From Morchella semilibera (Eukaryota; Ascomycota; Pezizomycetes; Pezizales; Morchellaceae): 64,000 bases of DNA. Made by a program: the position numbers and the translations under genes. The notes under the pieces are model-generated. The model ran no database searches. It saw only the letters and a program-made list of their open reading frames with translations, and was not told the origin of the DNA. The DNA lies in NCBI GenBank assembly GCA_009192285.1, contig WBVU01000009.1, forward strand, positions 1,302,001-1,366,000. Reading direction: 5' to 3'. Shown one piece after another: positions 1 through 64,000 of this stretch (its first letter is position 1; every line of letters begins with the position of its first letter).

Positions 1-577
1 GGCAGTCTTAAGAAGCGGAAGGAGATTCGTGGCGAACCGTAGACGACCGTAGTAAGAAACGGTCATTTTACGGTCGAGGCCTTCGGGGGTTTCCTCGCGA
101 CCGGCCATACTCATGTAGCCGGGTGACATAAAGAGCAGATTTAGCTTCTTCTCTTTTACAGCGATTTGAGAGCTGATATTATCAACACTTGAGAGAAGAG
201 TTGCATCGGCCTTTAAAAACTGGATCTTAGAGTCGGGGTTGAGCTTTTGTAGCTCGTTGGTGATCTTTTCTCCGGAAGCTTCGGACCTGATGCTTGTTAG
301 TGGGGATTCTGATCAGTGTGTAGGGATTTCGTGCTAACCGTCCAACAAAGTAGACCGTAGGTGCCACTGTTGAAGACACAAATGTCTTCATCGCAGTCTC
401 GCCAATCCCAGATGTTGCGCCAACTATATTGAAAAGGCTATCAGTATCATAGCTAGCTAGATTAGCTGCCTAGCCACCTGAACGTAGTAACGTACCAAAC
501 ACAGCAACTAAGCCCTTCGCGCCCGGTGTGCTTGAAAAAGCAGCATTCGTAGACCTTATTGAAGCTATTCCAACCAT
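1..577 (-). CDS. Short-chain dehydrogenase/reductase, 5' part only
   Basis: NAD(P)-dependent oxidoreductase of the SDR superfamily, cut by the left edge of the window. Reading the minus strand from the ATG at 577 and removing two GT-AG introns (424-495, donor GTACGT, and 287-338, donor GTTAGC with a CACTAAC branch-like site) gives one continuous protein of about 150 residues. It contains the Rossmann nucleotide motif G-A-T-S-G-I-G near residue 30, the turn V-G-R after beta 2, an acidic A-D-A after beta 3, and a beta-4 segment ending in S-P-G where classical SDRs have N-A-G. The catalytic S-Y-K part lies outside the window. Such proteins often modify ketones or alcohols in fungal secondary metabolism. 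No biosynthetic core enzyme is visible nearby, so the substrate is unknown. Confidence 0.75.
424..495 (-). other. Intron 1 of the SDR gene
   Basis: 72-nt GT-AG intron, donor GTACGT and acceptor TATAG. Removing it joins the N-terminal exon to the nucleotide-binding motif in frame. Confidence 0.7.
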
Positions 578-3556
578 ATTTTTTCTTGCTGATCTGTCAA
601 AGTTTGTAGTTTAGTTTTTTGGGGGTTGGACGTAGCAACGAAACCTTATTATATCCCGACCCCGGATTTAATACACAGTCAGGTTAGGCTTAATTCCGCA
701 CCCCTGTGTGACAGAAGCTTCAACCACACAGGAGCTTCAGCTGCCCGAGTATGACGTTGGCACGGATGAACGATACCTCCGTTGAATGATTCGAAAGGTT
801 CTATGGGGGCTCGGAACATATGTGTCACAACATCGGAACTCCGCGCCTGGGTAGGGAAGTTTCGGTTCGGTAGCAAAACAGATAGATGCATTGTATGCTA
901 AATCTCGGGCGGATAGATAGACCAATTGAGCGTGTATATCCGGTTAATCGTTGATTTGACTCGAAATCATTGGCCTCGTTAGTTGAAACCAAGAACCAAT
1001 AATTACGAGTGCCAAGACTGGCTTTGTTTGTCGAGTGACAATACATGAACCAGGGTCATTTTTTTTTAGTGCACATCTAGGGGAATGGTGTCGGTGTGCC
1101 GTGATAACCAAGATGTGATATGTACCTGCATGTACCAAATACTGCCCAAGGCTGTGGCTGTGGATCCCTTGGTTAACCCATTTTCTAAGTTCATAAGGCT
1201 TTGGGATCATGGGACGTCGATGCCTACCTGCTGTGTATCCCAGAAAATGGAGCAATAACAGGGACTTTTAGCATAATGCAGACTCCATGTATGCAATATT
1301 CTGCACCCTCAGATGTAGAACACTGTTCCAAATCGAAGGTTGACAGCCGTTGCCAACACTTTTTACCCCACGAATGACAAGGTTCCCGGCGCTCCCAAGA
1401 AGCAGGCCACTTTAAAATCCTAGGCGGCATATCAATGAGCTTATATCATATTTCTTTGTTGAAGGGTTGGACCACTCTCGGAGACCTGTGCAGAAGATAA
1501 GCATACATGTAGTAACTTGCTGTATTATATCTATAGTTGAACCATCTAGTCGAAGGTTCCAATGTAGACCCGAGCAGCCTGTATACAGCAACCATGACTG
1601 GTATCTATCCGCAAATACCCCTTTGCAAATTTGTTGGTCTGAGAATGATCGTGGGTGTATGGTAGATATCTACACCCCTCATCCAATGATTGATGGGCCT
1701 GTCACACGCTCTTTCTTTATCTTTATGCCAATAGTGGTTTAAGTGAGGGGTCGCCGGGACGAAGGCGCAACTTTCTAACCCAATCTCCTAGGTACAGGCT
1801 GTGGAAAGTTTTTTATTATTATCATTATTATTACATGTATTTAGCCCATTACTCTCTAGCACTGATGCTGGTGAGGGGTTGAGCCATAAATGGATGCTGG
1901 TGGTGATGTTTATGGTGAGGCATTAATGGAATGTTTTGTTGAGAGGGGTTGAATATTGAGAGAAGAGAAGTGGCAATTCACACGAATCGGGTGAATTCCA
2001 GAAAAGCAGGCCAGCTCATTGAAAAGAATTAATACTCGATGCTGATAGCATAGCATCTTTCGGTCTTTCCTTTTGTGGGGTGATGTGGTGGCGGGAGTAG
2101 GTGGCTTTAAGTGGCTTTAGACAGGTTGGAAACCTCGGACAACAACGGTGTTCTACCCGTCGGAACAAATAAATCTACGGAGGGAGCATCTTGACAACCT
2201 CCAAGAATGCCGAGGCATGAGTATATGTAAGTACATACCACCAAGTCTATAAACCATTGGCTTGGTGAGCTAACTGCTGGTGTTTAATTAGGCCTCAGAA
2301 AGGTAAGTACAATTGCTTGCTAGGTCCTCGCTGTCTCTCTCGCTTGCACCCCCTCATTTATGCATAATCCGGGCCGACCCGAGTGAGCCCCAGTGACCGA
2401 GTGATGGGTGTTTCCCTCCCTTAACCGAAAAAAAAAAAAACTCACCCGGTTTAACATAAGCGAGCCTTGGCATAGCCATGGCGACAACATGCGATGCACA
2501 ACGCATGGCGCCTTACCAGTAACAAAAATTTTCAAGTAGTCGCCTAACTATTAATATTGTAATCCATATCGAAGAACAACACATGGCAAAAGAAGGGCTG
2601 CATGAGGGATTCTTACACGCTAAATAAGGTACCTCTCGGACATGCTCTACGTCTGGCATTTGACAGGAATACGAATAATGAGCCTCACACCCAAGGAAAC
2701 AAACCCTGGCTTTATCCTCTTAACCCGGGCACATCGCGCATACAAGTACATACTCCTGTAGCTATGGACACCCATCACCCTTGGAATCGTATTTCTGGAC
2801 AGTCCATCCAATCCAGCCAGTAGACTTCGATGCCTAGACCCCACACACAACATCCACCATGCAGAGATCAAGCAGCTAGGGGAACCGTGAGTTGCCTGTA
2901 CGGAAGACGCGAGTACACATACGTGGGCACTGAACCGACAGGCCCTACGCCAGAAGGGAAAAAAAAAAAAAAGAAAGAAAAAAGTCCCCAGTATGTGCTC
3001 TACTATGGTCTACGTACATAAATGATATAGAGTACTCCGTACCTACCTTTTCTACAAAGTGGGATCGATTACTTACACTTAGCTACACACACATGCCTAT
3101 CCGAATTCTCAGCCCCTCCCTTCATCCGGTGAATACTGGCTACCACCTACATACGTACAATATTTAATCTACCATCCTCACGACTTTCGGCCGCTGGCTC
3201 ATTCAGATTCCAGAAGTACGAAGTCTGCATACATCCATACATCACATACGTACCCCGGAAATTGATCATAAAGTATAGAGCACCTACATACGTGGATTCA
3301 TTCGGTAAGTCTCATCTAAGATTCTCCGTACCTGGTGGGCGATTCGATAAGGCTGAGAATGAGGTGCATCCATCTCCCTTAAATAGCTGCCTGCCCTTAG
3401 GGAAAAAGGAAAGAAGAAAAAAAATAGAAAGGATCTGCACCTTTTAAAGGCCACCGTTTTATAAAAATTACCCCCTGATCACCATCTCAACCATCTCTTC
3501 TCTCTCTGTGGTCAAAGAAAAAAGGTAAACAAGAGAATATCGACCACAATATCATC
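578..3556. other. Intergenic, no supported gene
   Basis: About 3 kb with no open reading frame showing a recognisable domain. It holds short homopolymers (A runs near 2429 and 2959), two TACATGTA palindromes (about 1505 and 1833), and a pyrimidine-rich leader with an AAAGGTAAAC context just before the F-box gene at 3557. The 60-100 codon frames on both strands have no family-like patterning. Confidence 0.6.
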
Positions 3557-5260
3557 ATGAACATCCCGCAAGAAATCATCGATCAGATAGTGTCGTACCT
3601 CCCCAACCATGGCAGCTACATCAAGGCAGCGTTGGTCAATAAGGCGTGGAATTACGCTGCAACCTCAGTTTTGTATCGCGATATCACTATGAGGTTCATA
3701 CCTAGGAAATCTCGCCCCGCCGATCAGGAACGCCGGGGGATGCACGATATTTGTTTGACACTGGCAAAGTATGTTGCTCTCTTGTGCACTCCCGTGGTCA
3801 ACTACATGTAGCTTGTGGAAGCTGAATTTGTCTTGAATTACTCTTCAAGGAACCCCTACACCAGCTCCGTGGTTCATTCACTTGAACTGTACTTCCATCA
3901 ACCTCAAGCTAGCGCAGCACAGGAGTGGGAGGCTTCATTGTCGCCCGTCCGGTCATCTTTAAGAGAGGTCATCGAACGCAACGGGTTTCCGCGCGTTAGA
4001 AAGCTAGCACTTTGGTGCCCTGATTGAAAATTGCTCAGATCCTTCTAAAAGGACTATTACCGCAACTACACAGCTTGCACATCGTCTCACAATCCTTTAA
4101 AAACCTATATTTTGAGTACGAGGGGCCCACAGTACTCAGCAACCTCCAGGAGGTTGATTTTGAGTTCGCTCAGGACATCACTCGACGGGGGGGAGGTTTT
4201 TTGTTTACAAATGAGCAACTAGCCCTTAATCAGGAGTGGAAAGTGATGGAAGACAGGATGCATGCCCGAATCAACGCTTTTTTGTCTCGATGCCCATCGC
4301 TCCAGGTTTTGAAAATAGCTGGAACGAAAGAACTTCACACACTACTCCAATCGGTCTATTTCCCGTCACTGAAAACTCTTGAAATTGGCCAGGTTTTTAG
4401 TCACCAGATCGACTTTGCAGTAATATGTCTAAATTCATTCCTTGAACGGCATCCAAACATAACACGGTTGGCACTCAATAGATTGCCCGATGGTTCATCG
4501 CATGCCATTGCCCTCACGAAGGAATCAATGCTCAACATCCGAGAGTTTGTGTCCTGCTTTGAAGAGATACCATCGGACTACTATAACTTCATTAGACAGT
4601 TCCAACAGCTAGAGACATTGAGGCTTGAACATCATATTATTGTAGGATCAGTCTCACATAGGGAGATCCTTGAGTTGCTGCCCGATTTGCAACACCACAA
4701 GCCTGGGATAAAGAACCTAACACTGCCAATGCCAACACACATACCCGGGTGGACGCTAACAGACGACAAGCGGGCGTTGGCAAATTCTGCATTAGCAGAA
4801 TTTGGCATGGCATTCGCGGGAAGTGTCCCGGCAGTTGAAAAATTTGGAATCAGCCATGTTGGGCGGTTCCATGATATGGGAGCAGTACGCGCATTCCCCC
4901 CTTCGCGTATCCTCTGAGCATACAGTATTAATCTGACACGAGTAACAGTCGGAATGGGCACAAGCACTCCGCTTTCACAACACTCTCCGACATCTTGCTA
5001 TCAAAACGTCGTTCATACCCGGTATACCTGATCACGAACCAGCGAGCTCTAGGCAAGATCTCATCAATGACATAGCGCGATCGTTCTCCGCGGTACCAAA
5101 ACTGGAGACTGTGGTGTTTCTCGACCTCCCACACGAACATTCGGTCAAAGTTACAATTAAAAGGCTAGACAACGGGGTAGTGGAAGGAGTTGAGCGAGTG
5201 ATGAGCACCGGAGATGTGAATGAGGCCTTTTTTGACGACTTTCTCCAGTATGGATGGTGA
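3557..5260 (+). pseudogene. F-box/leucine-rich protein, interrupted
   Basis: The N-terminus from ATG 3557 is a clear F-box (I-P-x-E-I-I-D-x-I-V-S-Y-L-P, then A-A-L-V-N-K-A-W). It is followed by a long leucine-rich-like region that continues to a TGA at 5258-5260. F-box proteins link substrates to SCF ubiquitin ligases. The frame is broken. An in-frame TAG sits at 3809-3811, and no intron of acceptable size removes it and keeps the downstream frame. There is a frame change near 4024, which a 44-nt GT-AG intron ending at about 4040 or a one-base deletion could explain. A third change lies near 4880-4950, where a 42-nt GTATCC...AACAG intron (4907-4948) is possible. The last 100 codons remain well formed, so decay is recent, or gene models with micro-introns apply. 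The TAG falls inside a CTACATGTAG palindrome, a motif abundant in this DNA. Confidence 0.6.
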
Positions 5261-7035
5261 TTGTGGAAATCCGGCCAGCCCCTGCTTTTGTTGGGGTGTG
5301 ACGGCCTCCTAGGAAGGGAAAGGTTGAGGGGAATAAGCAATTATTTTTCTTTTTTGGCTATCTACATGTAGTTATGCGGATGTTGTTGTCGTGCTTGTCT
5401 GTGCTGTATCTAGCCGTACCGGTATGTACCGTACACGTAATATTTTTCTCTTGGGATAGAAAGGTAAAGATTTTCTGATATTCTTCAAGCCAGCCCCTAG
5501 TATTAGAGGTATGCCAGGCCTAGGCTAGGGCGATCATTGTGATGAGAGCGTATCCAATTCTCTTTTGTATGCACGCAGCTTCTCTAGTTACCGCTTCACA
5601 ACCTGTCACTCGGGGAGCTAGTGAAAACCAATGGAATCTGGAAATGATAACCGAATCTTATCATCGCGTACCCACGTGGCTAACCCACTATTCCGCACTG
5701 CCAAGCAAGCACTCCGGTCCGTTACGCTATATCCAGAGATCTGGATTATTAGGGTGTCGATATAAGTATAATACCAGAGCAGTCGACACGATGGCGTGCT
5801 AAGAAACCATTGTGGGAAAACGCCCCAAAGGGGTAATGAAGCCAATAGTGGGGCCCCAGCCCGGGGACACGATGTACATAGGTTACTAGTGCGTCAACTA
5901 TATATATAACGGCCCCAGACCCACTTACTCACCAGCACCCCTGACCGCTAGCTATCGTGCCTAGACAGAATCCCGTTAGAGGTACTTTTGTTTGTGCAGC
6001 GGTAGTACCGGGCTGGACGATTTAGAGGACATATACCGCTTTGTAAACCATCACAAAGTTACCTGACGGGTGCTGAGGTTGCTGCCTTTGTAATAATAGA
6101 ACCCGTGTATGTACTGTGCTTTTGTCGACGATGTGTTTTTTTTTCGCCTGGGTGAAAACAGAGGGTTACATTCCTTCCTTGTAGCTCCTCGTTTCCCTGT
6201 ATTCCTCAGCGTTTTCTGTATTGCTCCCTTACTAGCTATACATATAAGACCCCCAAAGGATGTTGCACTCACATTCGGTATGTTTGTTCTTGTCCTGCTT
6301 GTAATCTAAGGACGGGGTGATTATGTATCCCGAGAGAAGCCAGCTGCATGTAACCAGTGTATCTATCTGCTCGTAGATAGCAGCAAGTCATTGGGGGCGG
6401 GGACTCTGGGTTGGTAATCGAAACGTATCCCTCCGTGTCAGCACAGTCCGAAGAGAAAGAATCCCATCAGAGTTGGACCGCAGCTGTTAGCTGTCATCTG
6501 TCAGCGTTGAGTCCTGATCGTTGTGGAAGTGGAAGTTTATGGGGGGGGGAAGAGGTCCTATTGGCCAGCCAGGCCAACTTCTAAACCCTGCCTGTTGTTC
6601 CCCCCTGTATTTTTGCCGAAGAATAAAGCCGCTACCAGTGGGTTGCTCCTTCTCCTTTATTACGTGATCCTACATGAAGTTGGGGGCAGAGCTGATTACT
6701 TTACCTCGGCGCGCCGTCGTGGGGTTGCCGAGGAATCAGTAATACAGAAAATAAGCTTAACTTGGGGTCTTGGCAGGGAAATGATCACTAAACAGCCAGA
6801 CGATAGATTAACCCACAAATGCTTGATTAGAATTTGAGGATAAGGAAAGTGATCAAGAGAGAGAGAGGGTAGGATTTGTCAAGATTGAATTATTTATATA
6901 TGATTCATGAGCTGTTCTTTGCTCTGAGTACTCTTAATTCTTCAGTCTTCGTCGGCGGTGATTTCGAGTTGCTATATATTATAGGTTTCTGTTTTTGGTA
7001 TATTGTACCGTTTTGAAACAGACTATTTCTTTGAA
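5261..7035. other. Intergenic; contains a degraded repeat relic
   Basis: About 1.8 kb without a supported gene. At about 6555-6602 it holds a diverged internal piece (GTCCTATTGGCCAG then AAACCCTG) of the inverted-repeat element found intact at 22435 and 50914. A TACATGTAG lies near 5365 and a short GA repeat near 6856. Confidence 0.55.
6555..6602 (+). repeat. Relic of the CAGCG-type inverted-repeat element
   Basis: It shares the core GTCCTATTGGCCAG, a CAGCCAGGCCA-like middle and CTAAACCCTG, in the same order and spacing, with the elements at 22435-22543 and 50914-51031. The terminal arms with AAAATTATTGTAG are gone or unrecognisable. Confidence 0.55.
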
Positions 7036-8845
7036 ATGTCTCAGCCGTCCTACAGATCAAGCGGGCCTCAGCAGGAGCTAGAAAATATCCAAGACGAAGG
7101 CACAGATCTCGAAAAGGCCACCACTGTCTACAAGGAAGAACCCAGCAACACTCAAGCAGCCCATCCCCATATCACCAATTCCCTGGATTGGGACGGTCCA
7201 GAGGACGCCGAAAACCCAAAGACATGGAGTCTCGGAAAACGTCTGTTTCACAGCGTCATTCCCGGTCTCTTTAATTTTGTCGTGTAAGGGCGCACATCAC
7301 ATCCCTCATTGAAAGCTTATTCCTGACCCATGTATTCAAATCTGCGCCATAGCTCTATAGGGACATCAATATACACCCCCGGCGTCCCCCAGATCAGTAA
7401 AGAATTTCACGTGACATCTACCGTGGCTCTACTGGGCCTTACTGTATACTCTCTCGGCCTCGGCCTCGGCCCTATCATTGGCGCACCGATATCAGAGACG
7501 CAGGGCCGGAAAGCCGTGTATGTACTGACGCTCCCACTGTCACTGCTCTTCACACTTGGTGCAGGCCTAGCGCAGAACTTCGAAACGCTGCTAGTGTGTA
7601 GGTTCCTGTCGGGGGCGTTTGGGAGCCCGGCGCTGGCGGTCGGGGCGGGGACAATTGCGGACGTGTGGGTGCTTGAGGAGGGCGGAGGGTTAGCTACTGT
7701 GTTGGTTATTTTGGCGCCATTTATGGGGCCGGCTTTAGGTATGGGTGTTGGCCTTTGTCTGCTTGGCTTAGGATTTGGTACTGACGGTGGAGGGGGGATT
7801 TAGGGCCGCTGATTGGTGGGTATACGGTGCTTCACCGGTCGTGGGAGTGGTTGATGTGGGCGCTCCTGATCATTGGCCTTCCCATTTACCTCTTGACCTT
7901 CTTCACCACCGAGACGTACAAAAAGGTGATCCTCGCACGGCGGGCCAAGGCCCGCGGCATCCCTCTCCCGCCCGGACCAACGGGCGTTCAAGCCGCCAAG
8001 GTGCTCCTCACAATCACGCTCATCCGGCCGCTGCACATGCTAGTCACCGAGCCCATTGTCGGGTTCATCTCGCTCTACGCCGCCTTCTCGTTCGGCGTCC
8101 TGTTTGCGTTCTTTGCCTCGTTCCCGTACGTGTTTGGGACCGTGTACGGCTTCGACAGCGGCTCCGTAGGCCTTGCATTCCTCGGGCTCTGGGTGGGGCT
8201 GTTGCTGGCGGTGGGGACGTTTGCCGCCTTTGATAGGACGTGGTATGCCGCCGCCAGGGCAAAGGCAAAGCTGGAGGGGAGAGCGACGGAGCCGGAGCAT
8301 AGGCTGTATGCAAGCATGGCCGGGTCTTTGGGGATCCCGGTTTCTCTGTTTTGGTAAGTTGCTGGATGGTGGCAGTTTGTCTCTCCCTGGGGGGTTTTGT
8401 TGGGACTGACAGGTTGATGATGTTTATATATATAGGTTTGCATGGTCTGCAAAGAGAGATGTGCACTGGATCGTACCGATTCTCGCCGGTGTCCCGTTTG
8501 GCTGGGGGAACCTGTGCCTTTTCGTAAGACTCCGTTCTCTATAGTTGTGTTAGTTACATGTAGTTAACAGCGCCCCAGCTTGGAACAACAACCTACCTCG
8601 TTGATGTGTACCACGCCCTCAACGGCGCATCCGCCATGGCCGCCAACGGGCTTCTGAGATATGCCTTTGGCGCGGTGTTTCCACTGTTCACGGTGCAGAT
8701 GTATAGGGGGCTTGGGATCCCGTGGGCGGGCAGTCTGTTGGGGTTCTTTAGTCTCCTGCTGCTGCCGATTCCGTGGGTGCTGTTCAAGTGGGGGGATAGA
8801 ATTCGGAGCAGGAGTGCTTATCCTACGGGGCAGGATGCTAGGTGA
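7036..8845 (+). CDS. MFS transporter, DHA1 (drug/polyamine:H+ antiporter) type
   Basis: Twelve-helix proton antiporter of the plasma membrane. Five exons, with introns at 7284-7352, 7739-7803, 8354-8435 and 8524-8578, give a continuous protein of 512 residues. The N-terminal 80 residues are hydrophilic and end in the W-D-G-P-x-D-x-x-N-P-x-x-W motif typical of fungal DHA1 members. Helix 2-loop-helix 3 shows G-P-I-I-G-A-P-I-S-E-T-Q-G-R-K (motif A region). Helix 5 shows A-P-x-M-G-P-A-L-G-P-L-I-G-G-Y (antiporter motif C), restored exactly by removing intron 2. A long cytoplasmic loop separates the two halves. The start was chosen because 7036 is the first ATG. Intron 4 carries a TACATGTAG shortly before its acceptor. 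The substrate cannot be read from sequence. The flanking hydrolase is on the opposite strand, so co-regulation is not shown. Confidence 0.9.
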
Positions 8846-10548: not shown

Positions 10549-13383
10549 TTTCTTTCCTTCTTGCGAGTTTGTTATTTGACTGCGGGGTTAGAAGAATTGA
10601 GGGTTATATAAAAGTACATGAATGCATTTATATTTATCCCCGATCTGGAAGCATCCTGGCGAGCAAATCATTGGCCCATCGGCCTTCCGTCGCACCTGTG
10701 CATATGACGTACGAACTAAAAGCTGACCGGAACCTTCGGAGCCCGAGTGATTTGCATCCGTATCGAACGTCGCAGGCTGTTGTTTGTATTGTAAAGTATA
10801 GATATATGTCTATCCAGCGACATCCGGGGTTGGCATGCATGTGGTGGTGGAGTGATTCGTCCCGTTGCAGTGCGGGTGTGGTCTTCCCGGCGGGGGTGGG
10901 ATTTGTCTATACCGGAACCACCACCCTTGGAGGAAATAATACACCATTCACGAGGGCCCAAATCAAATACATGGATTGGAGGTGATTTCAGTAGTGCCAT
11001 TTGCTTGCTTGCTTGATTTATTGCAGTAACGCTAGAGAAACAAACACTGTTCAGAGCTAGGTGACGGCGAATCCTGTCTGATCGATCACGGGCCCAAGAC
11101 CACTATAATGTAGGTAGTAGTGCCCATGCTGGAGGTTCCAATAACGCGGTTTTTCTATATAACCGTTTCCAGCTGGACGAGGGGGTGGTTATTGCACAAA
11201 CAAGCTGGCCGGTATATATGGTTTGGTTTGGAAGCTGCGCTGGGCTGGGACGTTGGGGCGTAGCTATAGGTACATGTAGCCATTTCCGCGACCTATCTTC
11301 CCCAGCTGGTTCTCTGTTCGTTGCTAGTCATGTCGTATGTGTATGTAGACGTCCCCAGGCCCCCATCGAATATCTATATCCCCGGCCGCGGGATATGTGG
11401 TGCCTTTCCCCAACTGAGCGCTTCCCCCCGTGCATAGCTATCGGTCTAGCTAGCTAGGAGGATTTAGAAAACCGTAGAGACACCAAAGAGCTCTGGCTGC
11501 AGTGCTCGGAGGCTAAACAGCCGCCCATGGCCACATGAGTACGTAAGTACCGACCACTCCGAGACCACCGCTCGGCAAGTTGAGGGAGGGGGGCCATCCT
11601 GCGTGGCTGTTAATACGTACCTTAAGCTGATCTGAGGGTGGATGGCGAAGGGGAGACACCGGCCGGGACTACGTGCTAGCACCTAGGGCCGGCCAACTGT
11701 ACTGTGGAGGTGATAACCGATTCAGCAAGTAGTTGTTTCAGCTAGACGTTCCGATAACCATGGTCCTCATGACAGGACTGTCTACAAGTATATGTACAAG
11801 CCTATGCCTAGGACATCCTACAGAGCAAGAGGGGTCGGAAAAGACAAACAGCCAGCCGAGTGATCGTCCGTGACTGACCCGGCGCGGCATAAACCACCCA
11901 CGCTGTGATCTACGAGCTACCTTCCGGGCAATTAACTACCCTATCTCCGGATATTTCGAGGGGCTGGTTGGGTTCCGGGCTGGGGTGGGGCTAGATAAGG
12001 TACATATACAAGAGGACCAGGTACGTAGGAACTCACTCCTCAACGAGACATGGGGGTGCTCATGATCAGTGCATGGGCCAAAGCGCTGATGAACTGCGTC
12101 GGCGGTCGTGGCGGCGGTGCTGTGCGGGGAGTGGGCCATGGTAGCAGCTCAAGGAGGAAATGGGTGTTTGGTGGGCGCCGTAGAGTGGGCTCGGGGTAAG
12201 GCTTGTGCGCATTATATACAAGGCCATGTCCTCGAACACGAACAGGAGTAAGTATTACAGCTGATCTGCAAGGGGGCCAAGATCCTCTTTGTTCGTAGAT
12301 GACCCCAGGTGCAGTGCAGCCGTGGTGATGTTTTAGTATAATATATATATATATATATAGCCAGGCCCAGCAAAGAAACACCCGAACGTCACTGCCTCCC
12401 CCATATACCAGCAGCCTGCCCATGTCCGCTCTCAAGCACCGGCCTATAGCTATTTTCACCAGTCCCCGACTACCACCACTGAACCACAGGCCAGCACCCT
12501 AATACAAGTATATGCAAACACACCCACCCCCACCATCTAGCAGCCAATGCCTCCATCAGACTCCCAACCGCATGTCAGCACTCTTTTGTTGGTGGTAGCA
12601 TCAGTCAGGGTTAGGTTTTAGTATGCCCAGCCACGCACCAACCGAGTGACACTCCATGACGCCCGCGCAACCCGCAGAACCACCGCAGAACTAAAACGCC
12701 GCCGACTTGACATTCTACCACCAAGGCGGCATTTCCTGGCACCCCCGTTAAAGCAAAAAAAAGGGAAGAAAGGAAAAAAAAGGTTAGTCCACCAGGGGCA
12801 GGAACCGAATGAACCCACCCCCACAGCACCCTCTCCTCCACGACCACCCCGTTCCGCAGCCTCTCAACGCATGGCTTTATATTCTACCATAACCCACACA
12901 GAACAGGCCCCGCAAACCCCAGCGGGGGGAGATACAATTACACTCGTACCCACCACGTACCCGGGGTAGTCCATTACGTCCACATGCACGTTAGTAGTAG
13001 ACAAACAGATGGTAGAATGGCATGGAAGCATAAGTCATGTATGTAATTATAACAAGGGAAACACACACACACAGCCACAACTCAATTGAAATAAAAGAAC
13101 AACGCCAGAAAGAACTCCATGGTCCCCATTAAAAAAGAAAAGAAAAGAAGAAAGAAAAACCCAGACAGACAGGCGGAAAAACAACCTCCTCAAATGCCAT
13201 CCACAGCCATCACAACATAACAAGAGAAGAGAAAAGAGAAAAGAGAGAAAAAATGCCTATGATACGATACACATACCCCCTCAGCGTAAAGAAAACTCAG
13301 AGAAAGGGTCAATCAATACCTATACACTACACGTCCACACTCCCAATCAAAAAAGGAAAGAAAAAAAAGGAACAAGTCCACCA
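10549..13383. other. Intergenic, no supported gene
   Basis: About 2.8 kb. Several frames of 60-150 codons exist on both strands, but none has domain-like composition, and most are antisense pairs of each other. It holds a TA repeat at 12341-12359, a TACATGTAG near 11270, and purine runs (A/G-rich) from 13120 to 13370 just beyond the 3' end of the forkhead gene, a plausible 3' untranslated region. Confidence 0.5.
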
Positions 13384-15833: not shown

Positions 15834-15865
<32 letters not shown>

Positions 15866-39626: not shown

Positions 39627-40622
39627 TATTATTTGTATTCCTTACTTGCTGTTAAGCAGCATGTTGACGACTCTGCGGTGCTTTGCGTTACGAGTTTGAT
39701 TCTTGCACAACGGTTTGGGGAGTTTTCTGGTACCATGGGCTACGAAGTATAGAAACGCATAACTTTGAATAGCGATTGTTTTGTTTGCTTTGTTTTGTTT
39801 ACTGGTGGTCCTTTTCAATGTAGAACAGGATATGAAGATAACACGGGAGGTTAATTTAATAGTACATGTATGCATGGGGATTGATGGGCCCACGAGTGAT
39901 AACATATGAAGGGAATATAGAAGGAGCAATTGTTTGAGGTGAGTTTACATACGGGCCAGTCTGGTAAAGCGTCGATCCTGTGTGGCAATGAAACGAAGTC
40001 TTATCAGTTCGACACTACCTCACTCTATAGATCTACAGCTCCCGCAGATCCTAATTGAGGGGCAAATGTCCGAAAAACTAATTCTAGGCCCTCACTAAGG
40101 TTATCTAAACTTTAGGAATATTTAGAGTTTATTATGTAGTTCTTTGGAATAATAATTAGGCTGTACAGGCGGCCAGTTTTACCATGGCCAGATCACCACC
40201 GATCATATAGATACATATGAGGCGGCCAAGGTTTGCTATAACAGTACATATACCTTCTCTAAAGGTAGTCTCCCTATAAGGGTGCATGTAATTTCTCTAT
40301 AAGGGTGCAAGGTTCTGGTCGCAGGCGTAGTATACCATTATGGAAATTTTTCGTTGTAATATGATAAATTTTCATATGCATGGAAATACCAAAGAGGCAC
40401 TCGAGGTTAATATACATGTAGTAATACTCCATCTATATTTATTTTAAGTAACCGGGCGGCACTATAGCATTAATATTCAAAAGAGTGCATACATGTAGCA
40501 TCGTGATCAGTACCGGGTTTTCTCTCAAAGACCGATCACACGTACTTTTGAGACTGCTACATTGTGCCGGAGTATTATAAGGGTTACATTTGATTCAAAA
40601 ACTAAAACATCATACAACCATA

Positions 40623-41303: not shown

Positions 41304-41596
41304 CGAGAATTATAGAAAATTTCCTCTGGATGTTTTACTTATTTACCGTGACTTGAGTAGTAGTACTTTTGCATTCTATAGTATCTTGATGGATAATCTC
41401 ATACCCTTTTTCAAAACAGATTTGAGCATCTAATACTTAAGCGTTCAGTAAACGAAAACATTGAATTCAATCTAGGTCTAAATCAAAGTTCACAACCTAA
41501 CGCGCAATTGATCGACTTATGGCCAATATTACTTTAATATCTTCATTACCGGTTGGATTAAGACTACATACATGTATGTAGAAGTACATGTATGTA

Positions 41597-41752: not shown

Positions 41753-41948
41753 TATGCGTTGCGACTTTGTTTTGTGTCATGGGTAATTCTGTTAAATATT
41801 GCCTCGATTTCACTGAGCTGCCCTGAAATCTGTGGTGCAGGAGCGAGAACCAGGTTATAGCTCAATTGTACCGCGTACAATATGCAGGGTGCACTAAATT
41901 AAATTTTAGACATAGAAAAAGTTGACACTTGCTTTTGCGGGGAATGTA

Positions 41949-42173
41949 CCCAGGGTGTTGGAAAGTGATGCACATTTTGACTAGACAACGCCCAAATACT
42001 TTACCACAATACAACAAAACCGTACAGAACTTCTCTACCATACCTAAGTACTAAGCATATACTTTTATAAAGAGTATCTGCACTCATATTTACCTTGAAA
42101 TAGCCTGGTGTGGGGGTTGGTTCCCGTGTGGCTATGAAACCACCAAATGTGCATCACTTTCCGACACCCTGGG
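41949..42173 (+). mobile_element. TA-flanked MITE, CCCAGGG family (225 bp)
   Basis: Terminal inverted repeats of 29 bp with one mismatch, starting CCCAGGGTGT and including GGAAAGTGATGCACATTT. TA flanks both ends. The near-identity of the arms suggests a comparatively young insertion. No transposase frame inside. Confidence 0.85.
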
Positions 42174-45756: not shown

Positions 45757-48741
45757 TCCTCTAGGTTTCTTTAGGAGCGCAGAGTTCTGACCTCATTTTA
45801 TTTATAGAGCTCGAGTTGGGGTATATTTAATGTCATAATGTCTAAAAGTACATGTAGATAATGATTTTATTGGGAATGACAATAAAGGTTTCGTGGATTG
45901 TGTTCTGTTTAACAAGGACAATTTTGTGCTACTACCTACATTTGACAGAACCTCTAATGAACTTATTTTGTTAGGTGTTTTGATCAGTGCATTTACCTTC
46001 AGCCTGATCACATTTTAACATAGCTTACTCTATGCTGACAAACATTAACCAAGGGTATGTACCGAACCATGATTCATGACTCGTAAACTTACCTCGCGAT
46101 TGATTGGTTGATTCGCTACTATGATCGGGGCGCTCAAATTTTGGAAGTCAAAGACCCTAAAGTAGTAGATCTTAACATCTTGGCAAGTTATGCAACGACC
46201 TCAATACTCTAGGGTCACAACTCTCCTCCCACAACTCAGAGTTCCGGACCGATGTTTATATTTTTTATATAGTTGGACTTAGCTCATTCTGATCTCACTA
46301 TACCTATATGTCTGGGCTCGATGTTTATTTATTGCGGTATTGTTGGTTGGCGACTTTGTAATGGCGATTCGTGGTGGACGTTGCATCACTTTAAGGACCC
46401 CCGGGGTACAGGCATCGGTACGCGAAATCTGTTTCAATGCCTTGAGATTCCAGAGGTGATAGGGAGGGGGGGGGGGTGCTTCGGCGGTCGTGCTGATGGC
46501 GTCGATGTTGACCCTCCGGTACAGGGAGTTTGAAGTTTTACTCGTGGAGACTTAATCTCGAGTGATAGCCTGTGAGTGACCCAAACAAGATGTGGTTGTG
46601 GACCCATTTGCTCTAACCCAACCGCTAGGAGTTATGGGTAACGCAGCCTGTTAGTGAAACTCATCTTGGCGCTCGCTCTGCCGCTCTAATAACCGCAAAA
46701 TTCGGTACATTTATATTGTTCATACACGAAAAAGGTCCGTAAATGGATAATGCATCGCCTTATATTGACCGACGACTCTCCTAAGCGTCGTGTAACTCTA
46801 CCAACTATTTAGATGAATCTAAAAAATGCGTCATCTTTGCTTATTATGTTTCTATGTGAAATGAATCACCTCCAACCTGCTCTCTAAAGGGACAAACAAG
46901 GGAAAAAGCACCTTTTACTATGTGAGTTAAATTATGCCATTTGCTACTGTGAGACCATACATAAGCATTATGACATCATTTGAGACAATTTAATGAATTA
47001 CAGCACACAGCTCGCCATAATGCAGCTTTTTCCGAGGGATCCGCAGAATGATTCTCTTGTGCCCGTGTATCCTGTCAAAGCTCATTGACAAAAGTGTAGG
47101 TAAAATTATGCAGATGCGTCATTTGGTTCATTTATAATTTACCGATTTCCTTTGTACGGGAAAAAAGCACATTTGTGTGTTGGGCTATTAGAGATGTATA
47201 TGTCCCCTTCGACATTTTTATTGACTCTTTATTGAGTACTTATATTCTATTTATGTTATATTGATTCACAAATTTTATAATTAATGGGTCATGCTAGACG
47301 GATTGTTGGAAAAAAAGGGGGGAAAAAAAAAAACAGGGCTTAAGTTCACAAAAAAGATGCCCGGCAACTTATTCGTGCTAGAAAACGATATATATATACA
47401 TGTATGTATGTACAATGCGGTCCATGGCAGACTTAGACTTTAAAGGCGAGTACATGCGATGTGAATCATCACCTGTACGTAGAGCCTTTCTTATTCTGTG
47501 GTCGAGTAAAAATTGGTGTTGAACGAATGATATCATCTAAAATTGCGTGTAGAGCCTGAGTGTATAATTGTTCGTACGTTGTGGTGTCTGATACATACTT
47601 ACATGTATGTATATACTCGGGGCAGGTAAAAAGTACCGGACAATGGAGGTTTTTGGTTCACCAATTGCAATGGGTGCGCGTACTAGGCGAGAACCACTGC
47701 AAAAAAAGCCCAGAGACAAAACTTGCATTGTCCGGTACTATTTACCTGCCCCGAGTATACGTCAAGTGTGGGGCACCTAGATTTCCACGTGTTAAGTGCA
47801 TATCCGGTCTTTTTTTTTTTTTTGACTCGCGAGATCTACGAGTAAGCATCGAGCCCGGCCGCGGGTGGTTTTAGTCTTAGAAGGATATCAAGATACCGTA
47901 TATAGATATTCGAAATATTCGCGAGCGCCGTTAAAAATTACTCAAAGTGTTGTTTTTGGTGCGATAAAGCGCAAAAACGCTAGCGAATTAATCGAATATT
48001 CATGGTACGTGTTTTAGGACACCGCGAAATCTTGAGAAACTCGGGGAGATCACCGCCTAGGGAGTAGTCGGAGCCGATTAAGCCCTCTATAGTAGAATCT
48101 AAGCCTGAGATTTTGCGGTTACATATAGGATTGTTTTTGTAATATTAAATGCATGTAAACTCGGCCAGGCTCCTACGTACATGTAGCTATAGGTCGAATC
48201 ACTACATGTAGTATGCCAGAGTTGTTACTAAAATATGTAATCGAACCAATTAGGCTAGCGTTATATTCATTCCAAACCTAAAATATAAAATTAAATCTAT
48301 GTACAATATCCAGTCTACAAGCCCCTAAAGCTGTTAGGTCTCATATATCGGATTAAATGCTTTAAAATTGGCATACATGTAGCTTCGTTGGCGGCGCGCG
48401 AGTGACAATTCGTGATGCGCCGCGGCTGCCAAAATTTGTGAGTATTTTGGTGCGCCTGGGGGGGGGCCGGGGGGGGGGGGGCGCTCCTCTGACTAGTTTC
48501 TACGCAAGTCCTAGGCTTAGGCTTTCCACTTATATTCGTATGAATACAGTACTACATGCAGCAAGGCTAGATCAGCTGCGCCTACTGCGCACGAAGCGAA
48601 TATATAGTATTCTAAGTCTGATATAAGTCAAAGCTACTTGATTTTAAAGAAAACTATTCTAACAGAATGTACATGCAGTTTCCTTGACGTGACCCTGTTC
48701 TATGAAAATCTAGTAGTTTTTGTTTTTAATATGAGGGTCCA
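45757..48741. other. Intergenic with inverted-repeat elements
   Basis: About 3 kb of AT-rich DNA. Contents: a pair of similar direct repeats around GGGAAAAAGCAC (about 46898 and 47158), an element at 47616-47755, weaker inverted repeats at 47896-48005 and about 48016-48122, a T run at 47811-47823, a G-rich tract at 48458-48481, and TACATGTA palindromes near 45850, 47396, 47600, 48177, 48202 and 48374. No gene supported. Confidence 0.55.
47616..47755 (+). mobile_element. TA-flanked MITE, CTCGGGG family (140 bp)
   Basis: Arms of about 30 bp with one mismatch (CTCGGGGCAGGTAAA then AGTACCGGACAATG). TA outside both ends. No coding capacity. Confidence 0.84.
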
Positions 48742-50238: not shown

Positions 50239-50298
50239 GGACGGTTGCCAAGAGGAAATTTTGCTTTTTACAGCCAACACCACTCTTGGCAACCGTCC
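50239..50298 (+). repeat. Perfect 16-bp inverted repeat (hairpin)
   Basis: GGACGGTTGCCAAGAG and its exact complement separated by 28 bp. TA is not at its ends, so it differs from the neighbouring elements. The related words GTCCGTCC occur again at about 50430-50450. Confidence 0.75.
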
Positions 50299-52997: not shown

Positions 52998-53465
52998 TAA
53001 CAGCATGAGCCGGGCTTCACAGTGTGTAGCTTATGCACACGTGCCCAACATTAGTCGCATTGAACTTCTAGCCAACTAAGCCCAAAGAAGGTAAGTAGCT
53101 GCAACAGAAATCTGTTGATATTGAGCACTGACACCAGTGCCAAAGAAAAGATCGCCAGATCTGATCTACCTATGTGTGCACATGTTGATAACCTTGTAAA
53201 GACCGGGGACATCACCGAACACTTATTCAGTTGATCAGATCACCTTAAACCTTTATAGCAGTACCCTTTGACAGCAGAATATTTGAACAAAGGCTAGTGC
53301 ATAGATGATACGCTCTACATGTATTGCCCCTTCGGAGAATCAGGCTCTATAATTATCCATAAGGAGAGCTATAAGCCCAATTAAAGTACATAAACTTTTC
53401 GTTTGATTGCTACCATATACATACAGTACCGTATCTAGGACCGTCCTGCCCGCCCATCAACAGCC

Positions 53466-54892: not shown

Positions 54893-57431
54893 CCTGACTT
54901 TTCGGTAATGATTGAATGTGAGAGAATGTGCGAAGGATAGTGTCAACTGCAGGAAAATCAGATGGATTATATACCACCAAATGGTTACTAATATCTGATG
55001 AAGTCCTTTCTTGGTATGAAGCTATTCATTTTTTTAATATATGGGTACCTTATTTTTCTCATAGCTAGCCCCGCAGTATGCATATGTTGTCCCACAGTCC
55101 ATCAACTTAGATGTTAATTAGTGAATCAGCACCATTTCCCCGGATTTAAAGTTGATCATCCCGGTGCCTGTGTACCTGCATGTAAGCTACAAGGATTCAT
55201 TCGGAGGGTGAGGGAAACCTACCGCCTCGGCACCTCGTTGCGAGATGATTCCGGATAAATCATTTCGCTTGTCATAGCTCACAACCTAGCCTATACTCGA
55301 AACTCAAGACTTCCATGCCAGGAATGAGCTTCACTTGGCCCTTTTCTTCAGCATTAATCGCCGCGCCCCAAATCTAGTAGTAAAGCTATCAACTTTCTCT
55401 GCCCGGTACCCCGGGCCTTAAACCCGCATTTGCCCCATGCAAACTGCATGTACATCAATACCGATGACTAGTTGAAAATTAACCACCTACCTCCAATGTT
55501 ATCATATAGAGTAATCACAATATGTGATGATGATAAATCTTATCTACGGGTAGTACTTGCCGTTTAATATATATTTTGGTATGATGCCATATAACCGTTT
55601 ATTGTATGCTTTATTTCACATTTGAGCCAGTAATCGGGGTCTTGATCATGTGAGTATCTGCGTAGTATGTCTTACAACCCCTTCTAGAGACTACAAATAA
55701 CGGCCCAGTATTGCGAATGTTTTAGGAATGTGGTTGAGTACGTAGTACAGTGTAAGGGATATATATGACAGTACCAAAGATTGAGAGACTTCCATAGCTA
55801 CTTGTATGTAGATAAACCTATTATTTTGATACAAGGGGCAGGAGAAACGACGGATCGGGGCCCCCCTGGATACTGCTTCATGTGAGGGAAATATGATTAA
55901 TTAATCATGAGATCTACATAGACGCCCTTTACCGTGGCTATAGACTACAATTACATTAATAAACTTAGGTCTGTGGCAAGTCACCTAGAGAAAAAAGAGT
56001 GATCCGGCATAATTTGAGAGCTGGGAAACCTCTCATGATTGAGAATACTCTTGTATAGACGGTTCCTGCTTATAGTAGGTGTATGTGTAGTAGCTACGTA
56101 GGTTATAGGTGTTTATCACTTGATATATACATAGCAGCGCTGGCGAGGTTGATATAGATACGTGTAGTATAAACGGGAAGTTTGACTGTCCCATCCTCAA
56201 TACAAATCGCTCAGACAACTATTACTTCCCCCTAAGGTTTTTCTCTCCGTTCCGTTTGATCGGAGAGATTGATAAAACGGGTTTACATAAGTACACATGT
56301 GGACCGTTTTTGACCCGATGTGGTGGCGGTTTGTGCAGAAGGGCGGGAGTGGCGCATGCTGTGAAATGTTAGAACACGTGCACGCGACCAAACAACCGCG
56401 AGTGATAGTTTGTGATCCCATCGTTCCAAAACGACCCCAAAGTTTCGTCTGTGTGCCTATCAACCTAGGATACAATTGCAAGTATGTAGTTAAAACTATC
56501 GAGCACAGCCTCTAATCCCACATCGGATTTAACTACCCGACATCGTGCATAAACCGCGGCCGTGTTGGGATTAATTCGATCCAAAATGAGAATATCACAT
56601 TCCCAAGCGAAGCAGATGAGCAAAAGCTTGATTTTGTCCCATGGCCAGAGATAATTAATAATAGGTTTGATTATAGTCGCCGGTTCTCTTTCCACATGTG
56701 TACAAAAGTTGTGCCCCGATACCAGGGTTTTCGGCGATCTATGTACCGGGTAGATGATATAGGATCCGGATATCCGGTTTTCTACATATGTATATATTAT
56801 ATACTATTCGGAAAACGCTGAGCGAGAGCGGCCTGTTCAACTATTGCGATGGGGTAGTTGAGTCAACAAATCCCTCTAAATAAGCTTCGAGACTCATTAC
56901 CTCCAAATAGTGCCTGGAAATGGCATAGGAGACATGATTAGCTGCGAATCTCTCTATAACCCTACCTAGCTGCGATAACTCATAAATATCCACGCCGAAA
57001 TCCAACAATACTAATCGAGGTACTTGAATGGTAGGTAAAGTTCGAGTGGAAGTGTGTATTTATATTAAGTAGATCAACCAGTAAAATTCGGCTCGAATAG
57101 CCTATTTAAGATACATGTACTTACCTCAGGAACTAGTACATACTTGTACTTACTTATGTCTCAACAATATTGTTATTGACGGTTTTTGTAGACGGCATAT
57201 TATGAGTAGTGTGAATATGATAACAGAACTCTTTTGATTCGGATATAAATATGTATTAGCGAAACGATCGATACGAAAGAAAACACCTTCTGTTTTTGAC
57301 GCGCTACAACCTGTCAGCTCAATGACATCCGCCTCCAAATATGCGTTTCTTCACATACTCTCTCAAAGATAGGTAGTTGATGAGCTGAGGTAGATACAGA
57401 GTAGCTCACATAGGAAACTGCCCTAAAAATT
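54893..57431. other. Intergenic, no supported gene
   Basis: About 2.5 kb of AT-rich DNA: the GH6 promoter side (about 54.9-55.4 kb), then DNA with scattered TACATAC/TACATGTA words and a weak inverted repeat at 56294-56700. No regulator site recognised with confidence. Confidence 0.5.
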
Positions 57432-59820: not shown

Positions 59821-61594
59821 GTCGTCAAAGGTTGCGGATGGAGAGTCGTTGAGCTGTTCTTATCTGTTATAAGCAAAGTGAGGTCATTATGTGCACGGGG
59901 CTCTCTTACCCCGCAGAGGGTGGGCATATGTTATCACTCGAATATCTACTCTTTCGCGAAAGTCAAATTGAACCCAACGCTAAATTAGGAATATCTAGAG
60001 CCTTATATAAATGTCTACATAGGTATATACTCTACTTGTATCTACATACATGCTGGCCCGGTTCTCGTTCGCAAGCGCGGTATGGGGTTTTGGTTGTGCA
60101 ACCTCAGTTGGCGGCGCCAGCGTAACGTTGCTTGTTTTGTTTGGTATGAAGCACAACGGCTACAAGTCAGTTCTAATAGAATTGTATCTTTGCTTCAATT
60201 CTTATCATAACCTCGTGATTAGGGGAGTACGTTTGCCCATTATGCCCCAAATTACTCGACTGCAGCACTCTAACTTTCTTATTTTGATTAGTACAGCCCT
60301 GTTCTGGCACCCTACTATATTGTGTCTATGAATTCTAACCCACCAACAACCATTTCTCCTGCGCATACTCAAAAATTGATAGGTATGGCCGTAATGGAGA
60401 TATTGTAGCTCTCTGTTATTTTAGTCACAGATATGGGAGAATTAGGACTTTTCGAACGGGGCTGGACATAGCCCAACAGCAAAAGTTTGCCCGGCCTGCG
60501 CAAGAGAGCTAGAGCCTTTCGTTTATTCGTTTATTCCTGATATTGCATACACTCAAGGCGTTGGCGCTTGCACATGTGCATAAAGCTGGTTGCCTTGAAA
60601 TTTAGGTCTTATCCTAATTGGGATCATTATTTAAAGTATTGCCGATCACAAAATAGCTCTAAATCGCATATACATACATGATTGTAAGTAAGAGTACATG
60701 GCTAAGCAACGGCCAGCGCCCGCTACCCAGATAATGGAAGAGTAGATAGAGACTTTGCGCAGGTACTTTAGAACCAGCTCTATATCCTAGCTAAGTATCT
60801 GATTGGCGGACTTTGGGATCGGCATTAATCAGATTACCTTACCGGAAACGGAGATGGCTCTTGTTATGCACGCTCTTGCCAATTAAAGTACATGTAGTAT
60901 TAATGTATGTATCTATCTGTAATTCGGTGCGGACAAGTCATATGGAAGTAGCTGTAATAATAGGGAGCGTAGGAATGGATATAAGCTACATACATGTACT
61001 TACCTAGTGCTATTGGAGGCTTAGAAATACGCAGTCTGTCCCACTTTCGATCGCGATAGGACCAGTGTAGAGTAGAGTCCCACAGCTGTCTCACGGGGCT
61101 GAGTTTTGTTATTAACACTATATGTGGCTAAGAACATGTGTGTAAGTACATGTAGATACATCATATTCGAGTATGGTCATACTTTATGTACGTCAATGAC
61201 TGTATGTACCTACATAGGGCGCATTCTCATGTAAGTAGGCAGGCGCGCATATACAACCAATCCACGTCGCTTGATCATCACTTAACCCTTCATCTCTCAA
61301 AAAAAAACAGGCTTTCGAATTTCAGCCCTACCGTATCCCTTTGTTTGCGGGGTCGCCCGTGCCTGCCAGCGCACAACGTATGCTTGTTCTCAAATTCACA
61401 GTCAAATGTTCTAACTGTGACTCACTTCTTTGAATTTGAGGATCCATCACATGCGATACGTTTATATAACAGACCAACCCCATCCTCATGTTACAATTGT
61501 CGCACTACCATTGAACTTTACCTCTACCAATATCTTCCTCACAGAGAAAAAATACTTACTACCTAAAAAGCTTCATATTGCTCCCCCAATTACG
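59821..61594. other. Intergenic between divergent F-box and vWA genes
   Basis: About 1.8 kb with short frames only. TACATGTA palindromes near 60890, 60990 and 61145. No supported gene. Confidence 0.55.
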
Positions 61595-63816: not shown

Positions 63817-63862
<46 letters not shown>

Positions 63863-64000
63863 TCCCAACAGCAACAAGTGCAGAAGCGGATGCAGGTGCA
63901 TGGGGCGAAACAATCCGGGTACCCATCAGTGTCAGAACGGCACTCCCTCCGCCGCCCCTTTGTTAAAGGCGATGAAGGCGACGACTGGCTATGTGCCAGC
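61595..64000 (+). CDS. VIT and von Willebrand factor A domain protein, 3' end beyond the window
   Basis: Single open frame of at least 802 codons from ATG 61595, with no intron needed. Residues about 1-140 form a VIT (vault/inter-alpha-trypsin) domain: Y-T-F-P-I-Y-E-S, then K-E-E-A-K-A-V-Y-N-A-A and E-Q-N-T-G-E-V-F-T-T-S-I-G-N-I-H-P-G-E. Residues about 298-470 form a vWA domain with a complete MIDAS start, F-V-V-D-R-S-G-S-M, the T of G-G-T-E-M and V-L-T-D-G-D, so metal binding is expected. The C-terminus becomes Gln-rich (CAG/CAA repeat) and is still open at the edge. These fungal proteins are intracellular and of unclear role. Partner unknown. Confidence 0.92.
63747..63887 (+). repeat. CAG/CAA repeat coding polyglutamine
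   Basis: Mixed CAA/CAG codons, interrupted by CTG and CAT, with an uninterrupted stretch of about 14 Gln codons near 63822-63865 in the vWA protein tail. Confidence 0.9.

What the first reader, a model, noticed from the sequence alone, without database searches (positions are those of the whole stretch)
1..64000. Extreme over-representation of the palindrome TACATGTA / CTACATGTAG
By eye I count roughly 35 ACATGTA sites. A given palindromic 8-mer is expected about once in 64 kb of random sequence. Nearly all lie outside exons, are scattered on both sides of genes, and often extend to CTACATGTAG. It could be a regulator site, a scar of a tiny mobile unit, a chromatin or replication mark, or a genome-wide mutational product. 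This is the strongest unexplained signal of the window.
Basis: partly seen in the sequence, partly recalled or inferred. Interest (0 to 1): 0.75.

Follow-up and report, generated by a model that had tools for sequence, protein, structure and literature searches.

The report
Genome-wide palindromic DNA-binding site in fungus
An eight-letter palindrome, TACATGTA, is scattered about 22,000 times through this fungal genome, mostly outside coding DNA and with an excess of pairs exactly one helix turn apart, which looks like the docking site of an abundant, still unidentified DNA-binding protein.

Summary
The window holds 35 exact TACATGTA sites; dinucleotide shuffles give 1.05 and a third-order Markov model 1.96. 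It is genome-wide: 22,206 sites in 56.76 Mb against 3,723 for the word read backwards. It is discrete: 10 of 12 one-base variants are near background. Against crude gene models, intergenic DNA has 24-33 times the density of composition-matched words, predicted introns are also enriched, and coding DNA is near chance (1 of 106 sites). Sampled repeats hold few. "Often extends to CTACATGTAG" is overstated: 5 of 35.

New here is a spacing rule: of 2,666 close pairs (gaps 0-30), 606 have a gap of exactly 2 (10 bp, one helical turn), about 9 times the mean of the other gaps. Spacers vary, with no sign of tandem duplication in 50 pairs. This favours a protein that binds as a dimer, cooperatively on abutting decamers, over scars or mutation. 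The protein was not identified, and no promoter or 3'-end preference was found. The same palindrome is a predicted promoter motif in Phytophthora (PMC3520976, PMC3597505); I saw no fungal report in my searches.

The parts
1504..1511 (.). TACATGTA site 1
   Evidence: exact match; upstream of predicted + gene 3557-5528
1832..1839 (.). TACATGTA site 2
   Evidence: exact match
3803..3810 (.). TACATGTA site 3 (CTACATGTAG)
   Evidence: exact match; in a predicted 96-nt intron, model uncertain
5363..5370 (.). TACATGTA site 4 (CTACATGTAG)
   Evidence: exact match; in a predicted 124-nt intron near a gene's 3' end, model uncertain
8555..8562 (.). TACATGTA site 5
   Evidence: exact match; in a predicted 57-nt intron near a gene's 3' end, model uncertain
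11271..11278 (.). TACATGTA site 6
   Evidence: exact match; upstream of predicted - gene 9584-10703
25127..25134 (.). TACATGTA site 7 (CTACATGTAG)
   Evidence: exact match; cluster 25.1-27.9 kb upstream of predicted + gene 28598-29236
25174..25181 (.). TACATGTA site 8
   Evidence: exact match
25900..25907 (.). TACATGTA site 9
   Evidence: exact match
25919..25926 (.). TACATGTA site 10
   Evidence: exact match
26749..26756 (.). TACATGTA site 11 (CTACATGTAG)
   Evidence: exact match
27205..27212 (.). TACATGTA site 12
   Evidence: exact match
27287..27294 (.). TACATGTA site 13
   Evidence: exact match
27890..27897 (.). TACATGTA site 14
   Evidence: exact match
35320..35327 (.). TACATGTA site 15
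   Evidence: exact match; cluster 35.3-37.5 kb upstream of the + Kelch-repeat gene model 37721-39626
35403..35410 (.). TACATGTA site 16
   Evidence: exact match
35439..35446 (.). TACATGTA site 17
   Evidence: exact match
36593..36600 (.). TACATGTA site 18
   Evidence: exact match
37475..37482 (.). TACATGTA site 19
   Evidence: exact match
39863..39870 (.). TACATGTA site 20
   Evidence: exact match; between the Kelch gene and the + MFS gene at about 43.8-45.5 kb
40413..40420 (.). TACATGTA site 21
   Evidence: exact match
40490..40497 (.). TACATGTA site 22
   Evidence: exact match
41569..41576 (.). TACATGTA site 23
   Evidence: exact match
41585..41592 (.). TACATGTA site 24 (16 bp from site 23)
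   Evidence: exact match
45849..45856 (.). TACATGTA site 25
   Evidence: exact match
47397..47404 (.). TACATGTA site 26
   Evidence: exact match
47600..47607 (.). TACATGTA site 27
   Evidence: exact match
48178..48185 (.). TACATGTA site 28
   Evidence: exact match
48203..48210 (.). TACATGTA site 29 (CTACATGTAG)
   Evidence: exact match
48374..48381 (.). TACATGTA site 30
   Evidence: exact match
53316..53323 (.). TACATGTA site 31
   Evidence: exact match; just 3' of the - GH6 gene model 53482-54723
57112..57119 (.). TACATGTA site 32
   Evidence: exact match
60889..60896 (.). TACATGTA site 33
   Evidence: exact match; between gene models 57432-60353 (-) and 61136 or 61196-63975 (+)
60991..60998 (.). 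TACATGTA site 34
   Evidence: exact match
61147..61154 (.). TACATGTA site 35

Best explanation
TACATGTA is the core of a binding site for an abundant, sequence-specific DNA-binding protein of this fungus (a transcription factor or general chromatin factor). Shown: discreteness of the word, enrichment in non-coding DNA, scarcity in predicted coding DNA and in sampled repeats, graded flanks, clustering, and an excess of pairs exactly 10 bp apart. Inferred: the protein binds the palindrome as a symmetric dimer, each subunit reading TACA/TGTA, and two dimers touch when their decamers nTACATGTAn abut, one helical turn apart on the same DNA face. Also inferred: selection keeps the sites. The protein, and whether it activates, represses or organises chromatin, are not known.
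For: 35 sites against 1.05 expected in the window; 22,206 against 3,723 for the reversed word genome-wide. Discrete: 220 on both strands (110 sites) in the window plus 19 sampled stretches, while 10 of 12 one-mismatch words number 5-13 on both strands; TGCATGTA has 28 and TATATGTA 39. Predicted intergenic density 5.85 per 10 kb (4.15 without the four loci chosen for CTACATGTAG) against 0.176 per composition-matched word; CDS 0.19 (1 site) against 0.095. Repeats: without those four loci, 1 site in 23.4 kb of repeated non-coding DNA against 62 in 126.1 kb of the rest (binomial P 3e-4, though sites cluster and are not independent); with them 2 in 27.2 kb against 103 in 154.8 kb. Pairs: 2,666 with gaps 0-30 (control 129), 606 of them with gap 2; the other 30 gaps average 69; gaps 31-60 average 54 (1,627 over 30). 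In the first 100 listed pairs 19 lie at 10 bp, P 5e-10 against uniform spacing before correcting for 31 spacings. In 50 flank-printed pairs the spacers fall into 9 classes, 47 of 50 22-mers differ, and the spacer equals an outer flank in 8 against 6.6 expected (P 0.34), so they do not look like 10-bp tandem duplications. Flanks: TA at -4,-3 on 68 of 212 sides against 16 expected; resemblance to a neighbouring site peaks at offset 10, z 9.8. TGTA-N2-TACA occurs 18 times, the other gaps of 0-24 each 2-12 times.
Against: No binding protein was identified. No clear peak at starts or stops; upstream and downstream densities are similar, and predicted convergent regions are as dense as divergent ones (9.75 in 5 regions, 9.46 in 4, tandem 3.01 in 11, per 10 kb), although the largest 'convergent' region hides a missed gene. 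Predicted introns are as enriched as intergenic DNA (4.27 per 10 kb against 0.215 control; 4 sites on uncertain models), which a promoter-only site would not give. The overlapping form TACATGTACATGTA (501, control 90) hints at 6-bp slippage or alternative occupancy. The reversed control also has 37 of 129 pairs (29%, against 23% for TACATGTA) at 10 bp; in a flank-restricted version (115 pairs, 50 + strand rows listed) all 13 such rows have an AC/GT spacer and contain a TACATGTA themselves (read by eye), so I take them as derived, which is interpretation. In the sampled loci only one exact 10-bp pair occurs, and unrelated repeated 8-mers have uneven spacings too (91 pairs at 10 bp, 117 at 12, 97 at 21). 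No relative was available to test conservation.
Confidence: 0.64

Rival explanations
1. Mutational or slippage product: TACA/TGTA-rich simple sequence expands and yields TACATGTA as a by-product, without function.
For: TACA is the commonest 4-base flank (14 of 220 sides); TATATGTA and TACATACA are raised; the 6-bp overlapping form numbers 501; predicted introns are enriched like intergenic DNA; the reversed control, made of the same TACA/TGTA blocks, also pairs at 10 bp.
Against: Few sites in sampled repeats (1 in 23.4 kb) and near chance level in CDS; the 8-mer is 17 times its third-order expectation in non-coding DNA; the 10-bp pairs have varied spacers, unlike slippage.
Confidence: 0.15
2. 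Excision footprints of a Tc1/mariner-like element (TA target duplicated around CA/TG end bases).
For: taCATGta is mentioned in PMC3520976 as a rare Tc1 footprint in C. elegans (passage; the original was not read). Tc1/mariner-like MITEs occur here, one copy abutting a TACATGTA (L013).
Against: The MITE seen here ends in CCC/GGG, so its footprint would be TA-CC-GG-TA; TACCGGTA has 5 sites, within the 1-9 of the other doubly changed palindromes apart from TATATATA. Footprints would not be expected to prefer an exact 10-bp spacing. 103 of 105 non-coding sampled sites lie outside DNA repeated among the sampled loci.
Confidence: 0.05
3. RNA-level signal (3'-end formation or mRNA stability; UGUA-type element readable on both strands).
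For: Some sites lie just 3' of gene models (53316, 57112, perhaps 5363 and 8555), and predicted convergent regions are dense.
Against: Density within 250 nt of stops is not higher than at 1-3 kb; an RNA signal need not be palindromic or spaced by 10 bp.
Confidence: 0.06
4. DNA-modification or chromosome-architecture mark (for example adenine methylation at CATG, insulator or pairing site) rather than a gene regulator.
For: Abundance, lack of start/stop preference, clustering.
Against: No methylation or contact data could be consulted; it overlaps with the best explanation, because a protein would still read the site.
Confidence: 0.1

Closest known systems
Phytophthora motif-1 (PMC3520976) / M93 (PMC3597505), TACATGTA
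   Same: Identical 8-bp palindrome, very abundant in upstream regions (12,070 Phytophthora genes in the first paper; 4,150 occurrences in P. infestans promoters in the second); the first paper reads it as suggestive of a homodimer site (passages).
   Different: Oomycete, not fungus; the passages I read do not mention a spacing rule. Here, with crude gene models, sites are about as dense downstream as upstream and lie up to kilobases away. The passages name no proven binding protein; none is known here either.
Iroquois (Irx) TALE homeodomain site TACATGTA
   Same: Same preferred 8-mer, as cited in PMC3520976 (passage).
   Different: The one Homeobox_KN match found in this genome reads WFINARRRR, with Ile at position 50; Irx has Ala there and Ile-50 TALE proteins read TGACA/TGTCA (numbering and both rules recalled).
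p53 response elements (two abutting RRRCATGYYY decamers)
   Same: CATG core, abutting decamers in a 10-bp period, inverted pentamer quarter-sites (p53 side recalled).
   Different: Base preference TA-CATG-TA, not RRR-CATG-YYY; most sites here are single; the p53 family itself was not searched for.
HIP1 highly iterated palindrome of cyanobacteria
   Same: Genome-wide iterated short palindrome (recalled).
   Different: HIP1 also occurs in coding DNA (recalled); this word is about at chance level in predicted coding DNA.

Membership tests
Phytophthora motif-1 / M93 class of cis-regulatory motif | Exact consensus TACATGTA far above background | tested here: met
Phytophthora motif-1 / M93 class of cis-regulatory motif | Enrichment in upstream regions rather than elsewhere in non-coding DNA | tested here: inconclusive
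   upstream, downstream and intron densities similar with crude gene models
Phytophthora motif-1 / M93 class of cis-regulatory motif | Correlation with gene expression; conservation in related species | not testable with these tools
   no expression data; the tool states that this genome has no relatives held
Irx/TALE homeodomain target | Irx-type TALE homeodomain encoded in the genome | tested here: inconclusive
   1 PF05920 match among 7 scored candidates, Ile-50 type; homeodomains split by introns could be missed, and the residue rule is recalled
p53/CP2-like tetramer site | Two palindromic decamers abutting with a 10-bp period | tested here: met
   606 pairs with gap 2, about 9 times the mean of the other gaps; most sites are nevertheless single
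p53/CP2-like tetramer site | Known base consensus (RRRCATGYYY or AACCGGTT, recalled) | tested here: not met
   bases flanking CATG are TA/TA; GACATGTC 1 site and AACATGTT 4 sites against 110; AACCGGTT was not counted
p53/CP2-like tetramer site | A p53-fold factor in the genome | tested here: inconclusive
   one CP2 gene (on both C12 and C13) and one NDT80/PhoG match (that these share the p53 fold is recalled); binding untested, p53 family not searched
Tc1/mariner excision footprint | Source element whose end bases give CA/TG | tested here: inconclusive
   the one TA-flanked MITE noticed ends CCC/GGG; other elements not surveyed
Tc1/mariner excision footprint | No preferred spacing between footprints (my expectation) | tested here: not met
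   10-bp spacing excess
Highly iterated palindrome (HIP1-like) | Occurs genome-wide including coding DNA (recalled) | tested here: not met
   1 of 106 sites in predicted CDS

The most novel reading that the evidence does not exclude
The fungus uses a still-unknown, very abundant factor that tiles its non-coding DNA through about 22,000 TACATGTA sites and assembles as tetramers on abutting decamers, an architecture like that of p53 sites; the same palindrome was put to use separately in oomycetes.
Probability: 0.2. Interest if true: 0.75.

Novelty: new variant of a known kind. Interest (0 to 1): 0.52.

Why it matters
If right, one protein reads about one site per 2.6 kb across a whole fungal genome, which would make it a major organiser of non-coding DNA that I did not find described in the searches made. 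The probe (one or two abutting decamers) is short and exact, so the protein can be fished out directly. The same word in oomycete promoters would allow a test of convergent use of one DNA site.

Tried and rejected
Excision scars and slippage were tested and disfavoured (see rivals). CP2 and NDT80/PhoG were looked for because of the one-turn pairing; each is present as one gene (CP2 on two near-duplicate contigs), which decides nothing. An allelic partner of the window for a polymorphism test: none found with window 25000-28000; the C9 and C10 stretches are identical over 9,842 bp, so they carry no information. Species identity was not established: a PKA regulatory subunit, a GH6 cellulase, a forkhead gene and gene models that I read as PHD- and HMG-box-like suggest a filamentous fungus, and its class stays open (the inference is mine). 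Telomere-word and palindrome searches of the literature gave no organism and, in the rows listed, no fungal report (only two papers were opened, as passages). Position relative to starts and stops gave no peak. My gene finder missed an MFS gene in its first run and scored it weakly in the second, so all coding/non-coding splits are approximate. Loci L010-L013 were chosen because they hold CTACATGTAG and bias densities upward; one search includes them, searches also give results without them. Repeats were defined only by similarity among the sampled loci. Changed after re-checking: intron enrichment and the reversed-control percentage are now told in full, and I lowered the main odds slightly (0.66 to 0.64) and raised the slippage rival (0.13 to 0.15).
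Full report
What was checked. The window has 35 exact TACATGTA and 37 ACATGTA; 100 dinucleotide-preserving shuffles give 1.05 on average and at most 4. A third-order Markov model gives 1.96. The control palindrome ATGTACAT occurs 5 times.

Genome scale. The window is G000:C23:1302001-1366000 of a 56,756,124-base assembly in 23 contigs. TACATGTA occurs 22,206 times, the reversed word 3,723 times. CTACATGTAG occurs 2,029 times, its reversed word 30 times. Some contigs look like near-duplicates (C9/C10 stretches identical over 9,842 bp; C12/C13 carry a CP2 match at nearly the same coordinate), so genome counts are somewhat inflated.

Anatomy of the site. In the window plus 19 sampled 10-kb stretches there are 110 sites, or 106 without the duplicate stretch L021. 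The core is sharp: 10 of 12 one-base variants number 5-13 on both strands against 220 for the word; TGCATGTA (28) and TATATGTA (39) are moderately raised. Flanks are graded and symmetric: C at -1 is favoured and T avoided, and TA at -4,-3 is found on 68 of 212 sides against 16 expected. Of 105 non-coding sites, 103 lie outside DNA repeated among the sampled loci, so no long shared element carries them.

Where the sites lie. With ab initio gene models made for this purpose, 101 of 106 sites are intergenic, 4 in predicted introns and 1 in predicted CDS. Intergenic density is 5.85 per 10 kb against 0.176 per composition-matched word (33x), or 4.15 (24x) without the four loci chosen for CTACATGTAG. 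Introns give 4.27 against 0.215, and CDS 0.19 against 0.095. So the sites are enriched in non-coding DNA generally; the intron placements are few and rest on uncertain models. A second set of models gives 100, 5 and 1. Repeated non-coding DNA holds 1 site in 23.4 kb against 62 in 126.1 kb elsewhere, without the four loci (binomial P 3e-4). No peak at starts or stops was seen, and convergent (9.75 per 10 kb, 5 regions) and divergent regions (9.46, 4 regions) are equally dense, tandem ones less (3.01, 11 regions). This counts against a promoter-only reading, but the gene models miss genes: an MFS gene at about 43.8-45.5 kb lies inside the largest 'convergent' region.

The spacing rule. Genome-wide, 2,666 pairs have gaps of 0-30 bases (reversed control 129) and 1,627 have gaps of 31-60; against about 9 per gap for evenly scattered sites (my arithmetic), the sites cluster. 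Exactly two bases, a 10-bp period, separate 606 of them (23%); the other 30 gaps of the first set average 69. In the first 100 listed pairs, 19 have this spacing (P 5e-10 against uniform, before correcting for 31 spacings). Of 50 such pairs with flanks printed (the first 50 of 394 that fit the flank-restricted pattern), spacers fall into 9 classes, and the spacer equals an outer flank in 8 against 6.6 expected (P 0.34), so tandem duplication does not look like the source. Among the 50 pairs listed there are four triples at 10 + 10 bp.

Results that cut the other way. The reversed control has 37 of its 129 pairs (29%) at 10 bp. In the 50 + strand rows listed for a flank-restricted version (115 pairs), 13 lie at 10 bp, all with an AC/GT spacer and all containing a TACATGTA (read by eye); I take them as derived from the TACATGTA family. 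The sampled loci themselves hold one exact 10-bp pair, and unrelated repeated 8-mers there have uneven spacings (91 pairs at 10 bp, 117 at 12, 97 at 21). The overlapping form TACATGTACATGTA occurs 501 times, control 90, and is not explained by the dimer-pair model.

Mechanism. Discreteness, graded flanks, non-coding placement and a one-turn pairing preference are what a dimeric DNA-binding protein with dimer-dimer contacts would leave. That the sites are bound, and by what, is inference. The genome gave one TALE homeodomain match of the Ile-50 type, one CP2 gene and one NDT80/PhoG match; none is shown to bind TACATGTA. The two densest sampled clusters, L012 and L013, were fetched because they are dense; L013's 21 sites lie between two + strand gene models, the downstream one HMG-box-like by my reading.

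Known precedents. In Phytophthora the same word is motif-1 (PMC3520976; passages) and M93 (PMC3597505; passages). The first paper finds it upstream of 12,070 Phytophthora genes and correlated with up-regulation during infection. The second counts 4,150 occurrences in P. infestans promoters and suggests a link to general growth. PMC3520976 also mentions the Irx preference and the Tc1 footprint; those original papers were not read. Full-text searches for TACATGTA (290 papers, 40 listed), for TACATGTA with motif, fung and promoter (13 listed) and for CTACATGTAG (3 listed) showed no title or start of abstract reporting it for a fungus; apart from the two Phytophthora papers none was opened.

Verdict. 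A real, genome-wide signal, best read as the binding site of an abundant unidentified factor. It is a new variant of a known kind: the word is known in oomycetes; its density in this fungus and the 10-bp pairing are what is new here.

Noticed in passing
window 41945-42177; L020 7197-7421; L013 about 3206-3404: A Tc1/mariner-like MITE of about 200-230 bp with inverted ends ..GTGCATCACTTTCCGACACCCTGGG next to TA; the L013 copy abuts a TACATGTA.
   Followed up: partly
L006 about 1-200, L007 about 1-250 (starts of C1 and C2): Telomere-like array of a 10-base unit, CCCTAACTAA; a literature search for it named no organism in the rows listed.
   Followed up: partly
contigs C9/C10 and C12/C13: Near-duplicate contigs (L020 and L021 identical over 9,842 bp; CP2 match at 218754 on C12 and 218769 on C13), perhaps two nuclei or haplotypes kept in one assembly.
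   Followed up: no
sampled non-coding DNA: GCTCGAGC is another palindromic 8-mer about 10 times its third-order expectation.
   Followed up: no
L013 3405-6328 (C1 2188404-2191327): Densest sampled cluster, 21 sites in about 3 kb, upstream of a predicted gene with an HMG-box-like stretch (label is my reading).
   Followed up: partly
genome-wide: 501 overlapping TACATGTACATGTA (6-bp period), not explained by the dimer-pair model.
   Followed up: partly
window 13384-17771: Large predicted gene with a forkhead domain on the - strand, with several tandem-repeat arrays.
   Followed up: no
window 53482-54723: GH6 cellulase-like gene on the - strand; the closest solved structures are cellobiohydrolases.
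   Followed up: no
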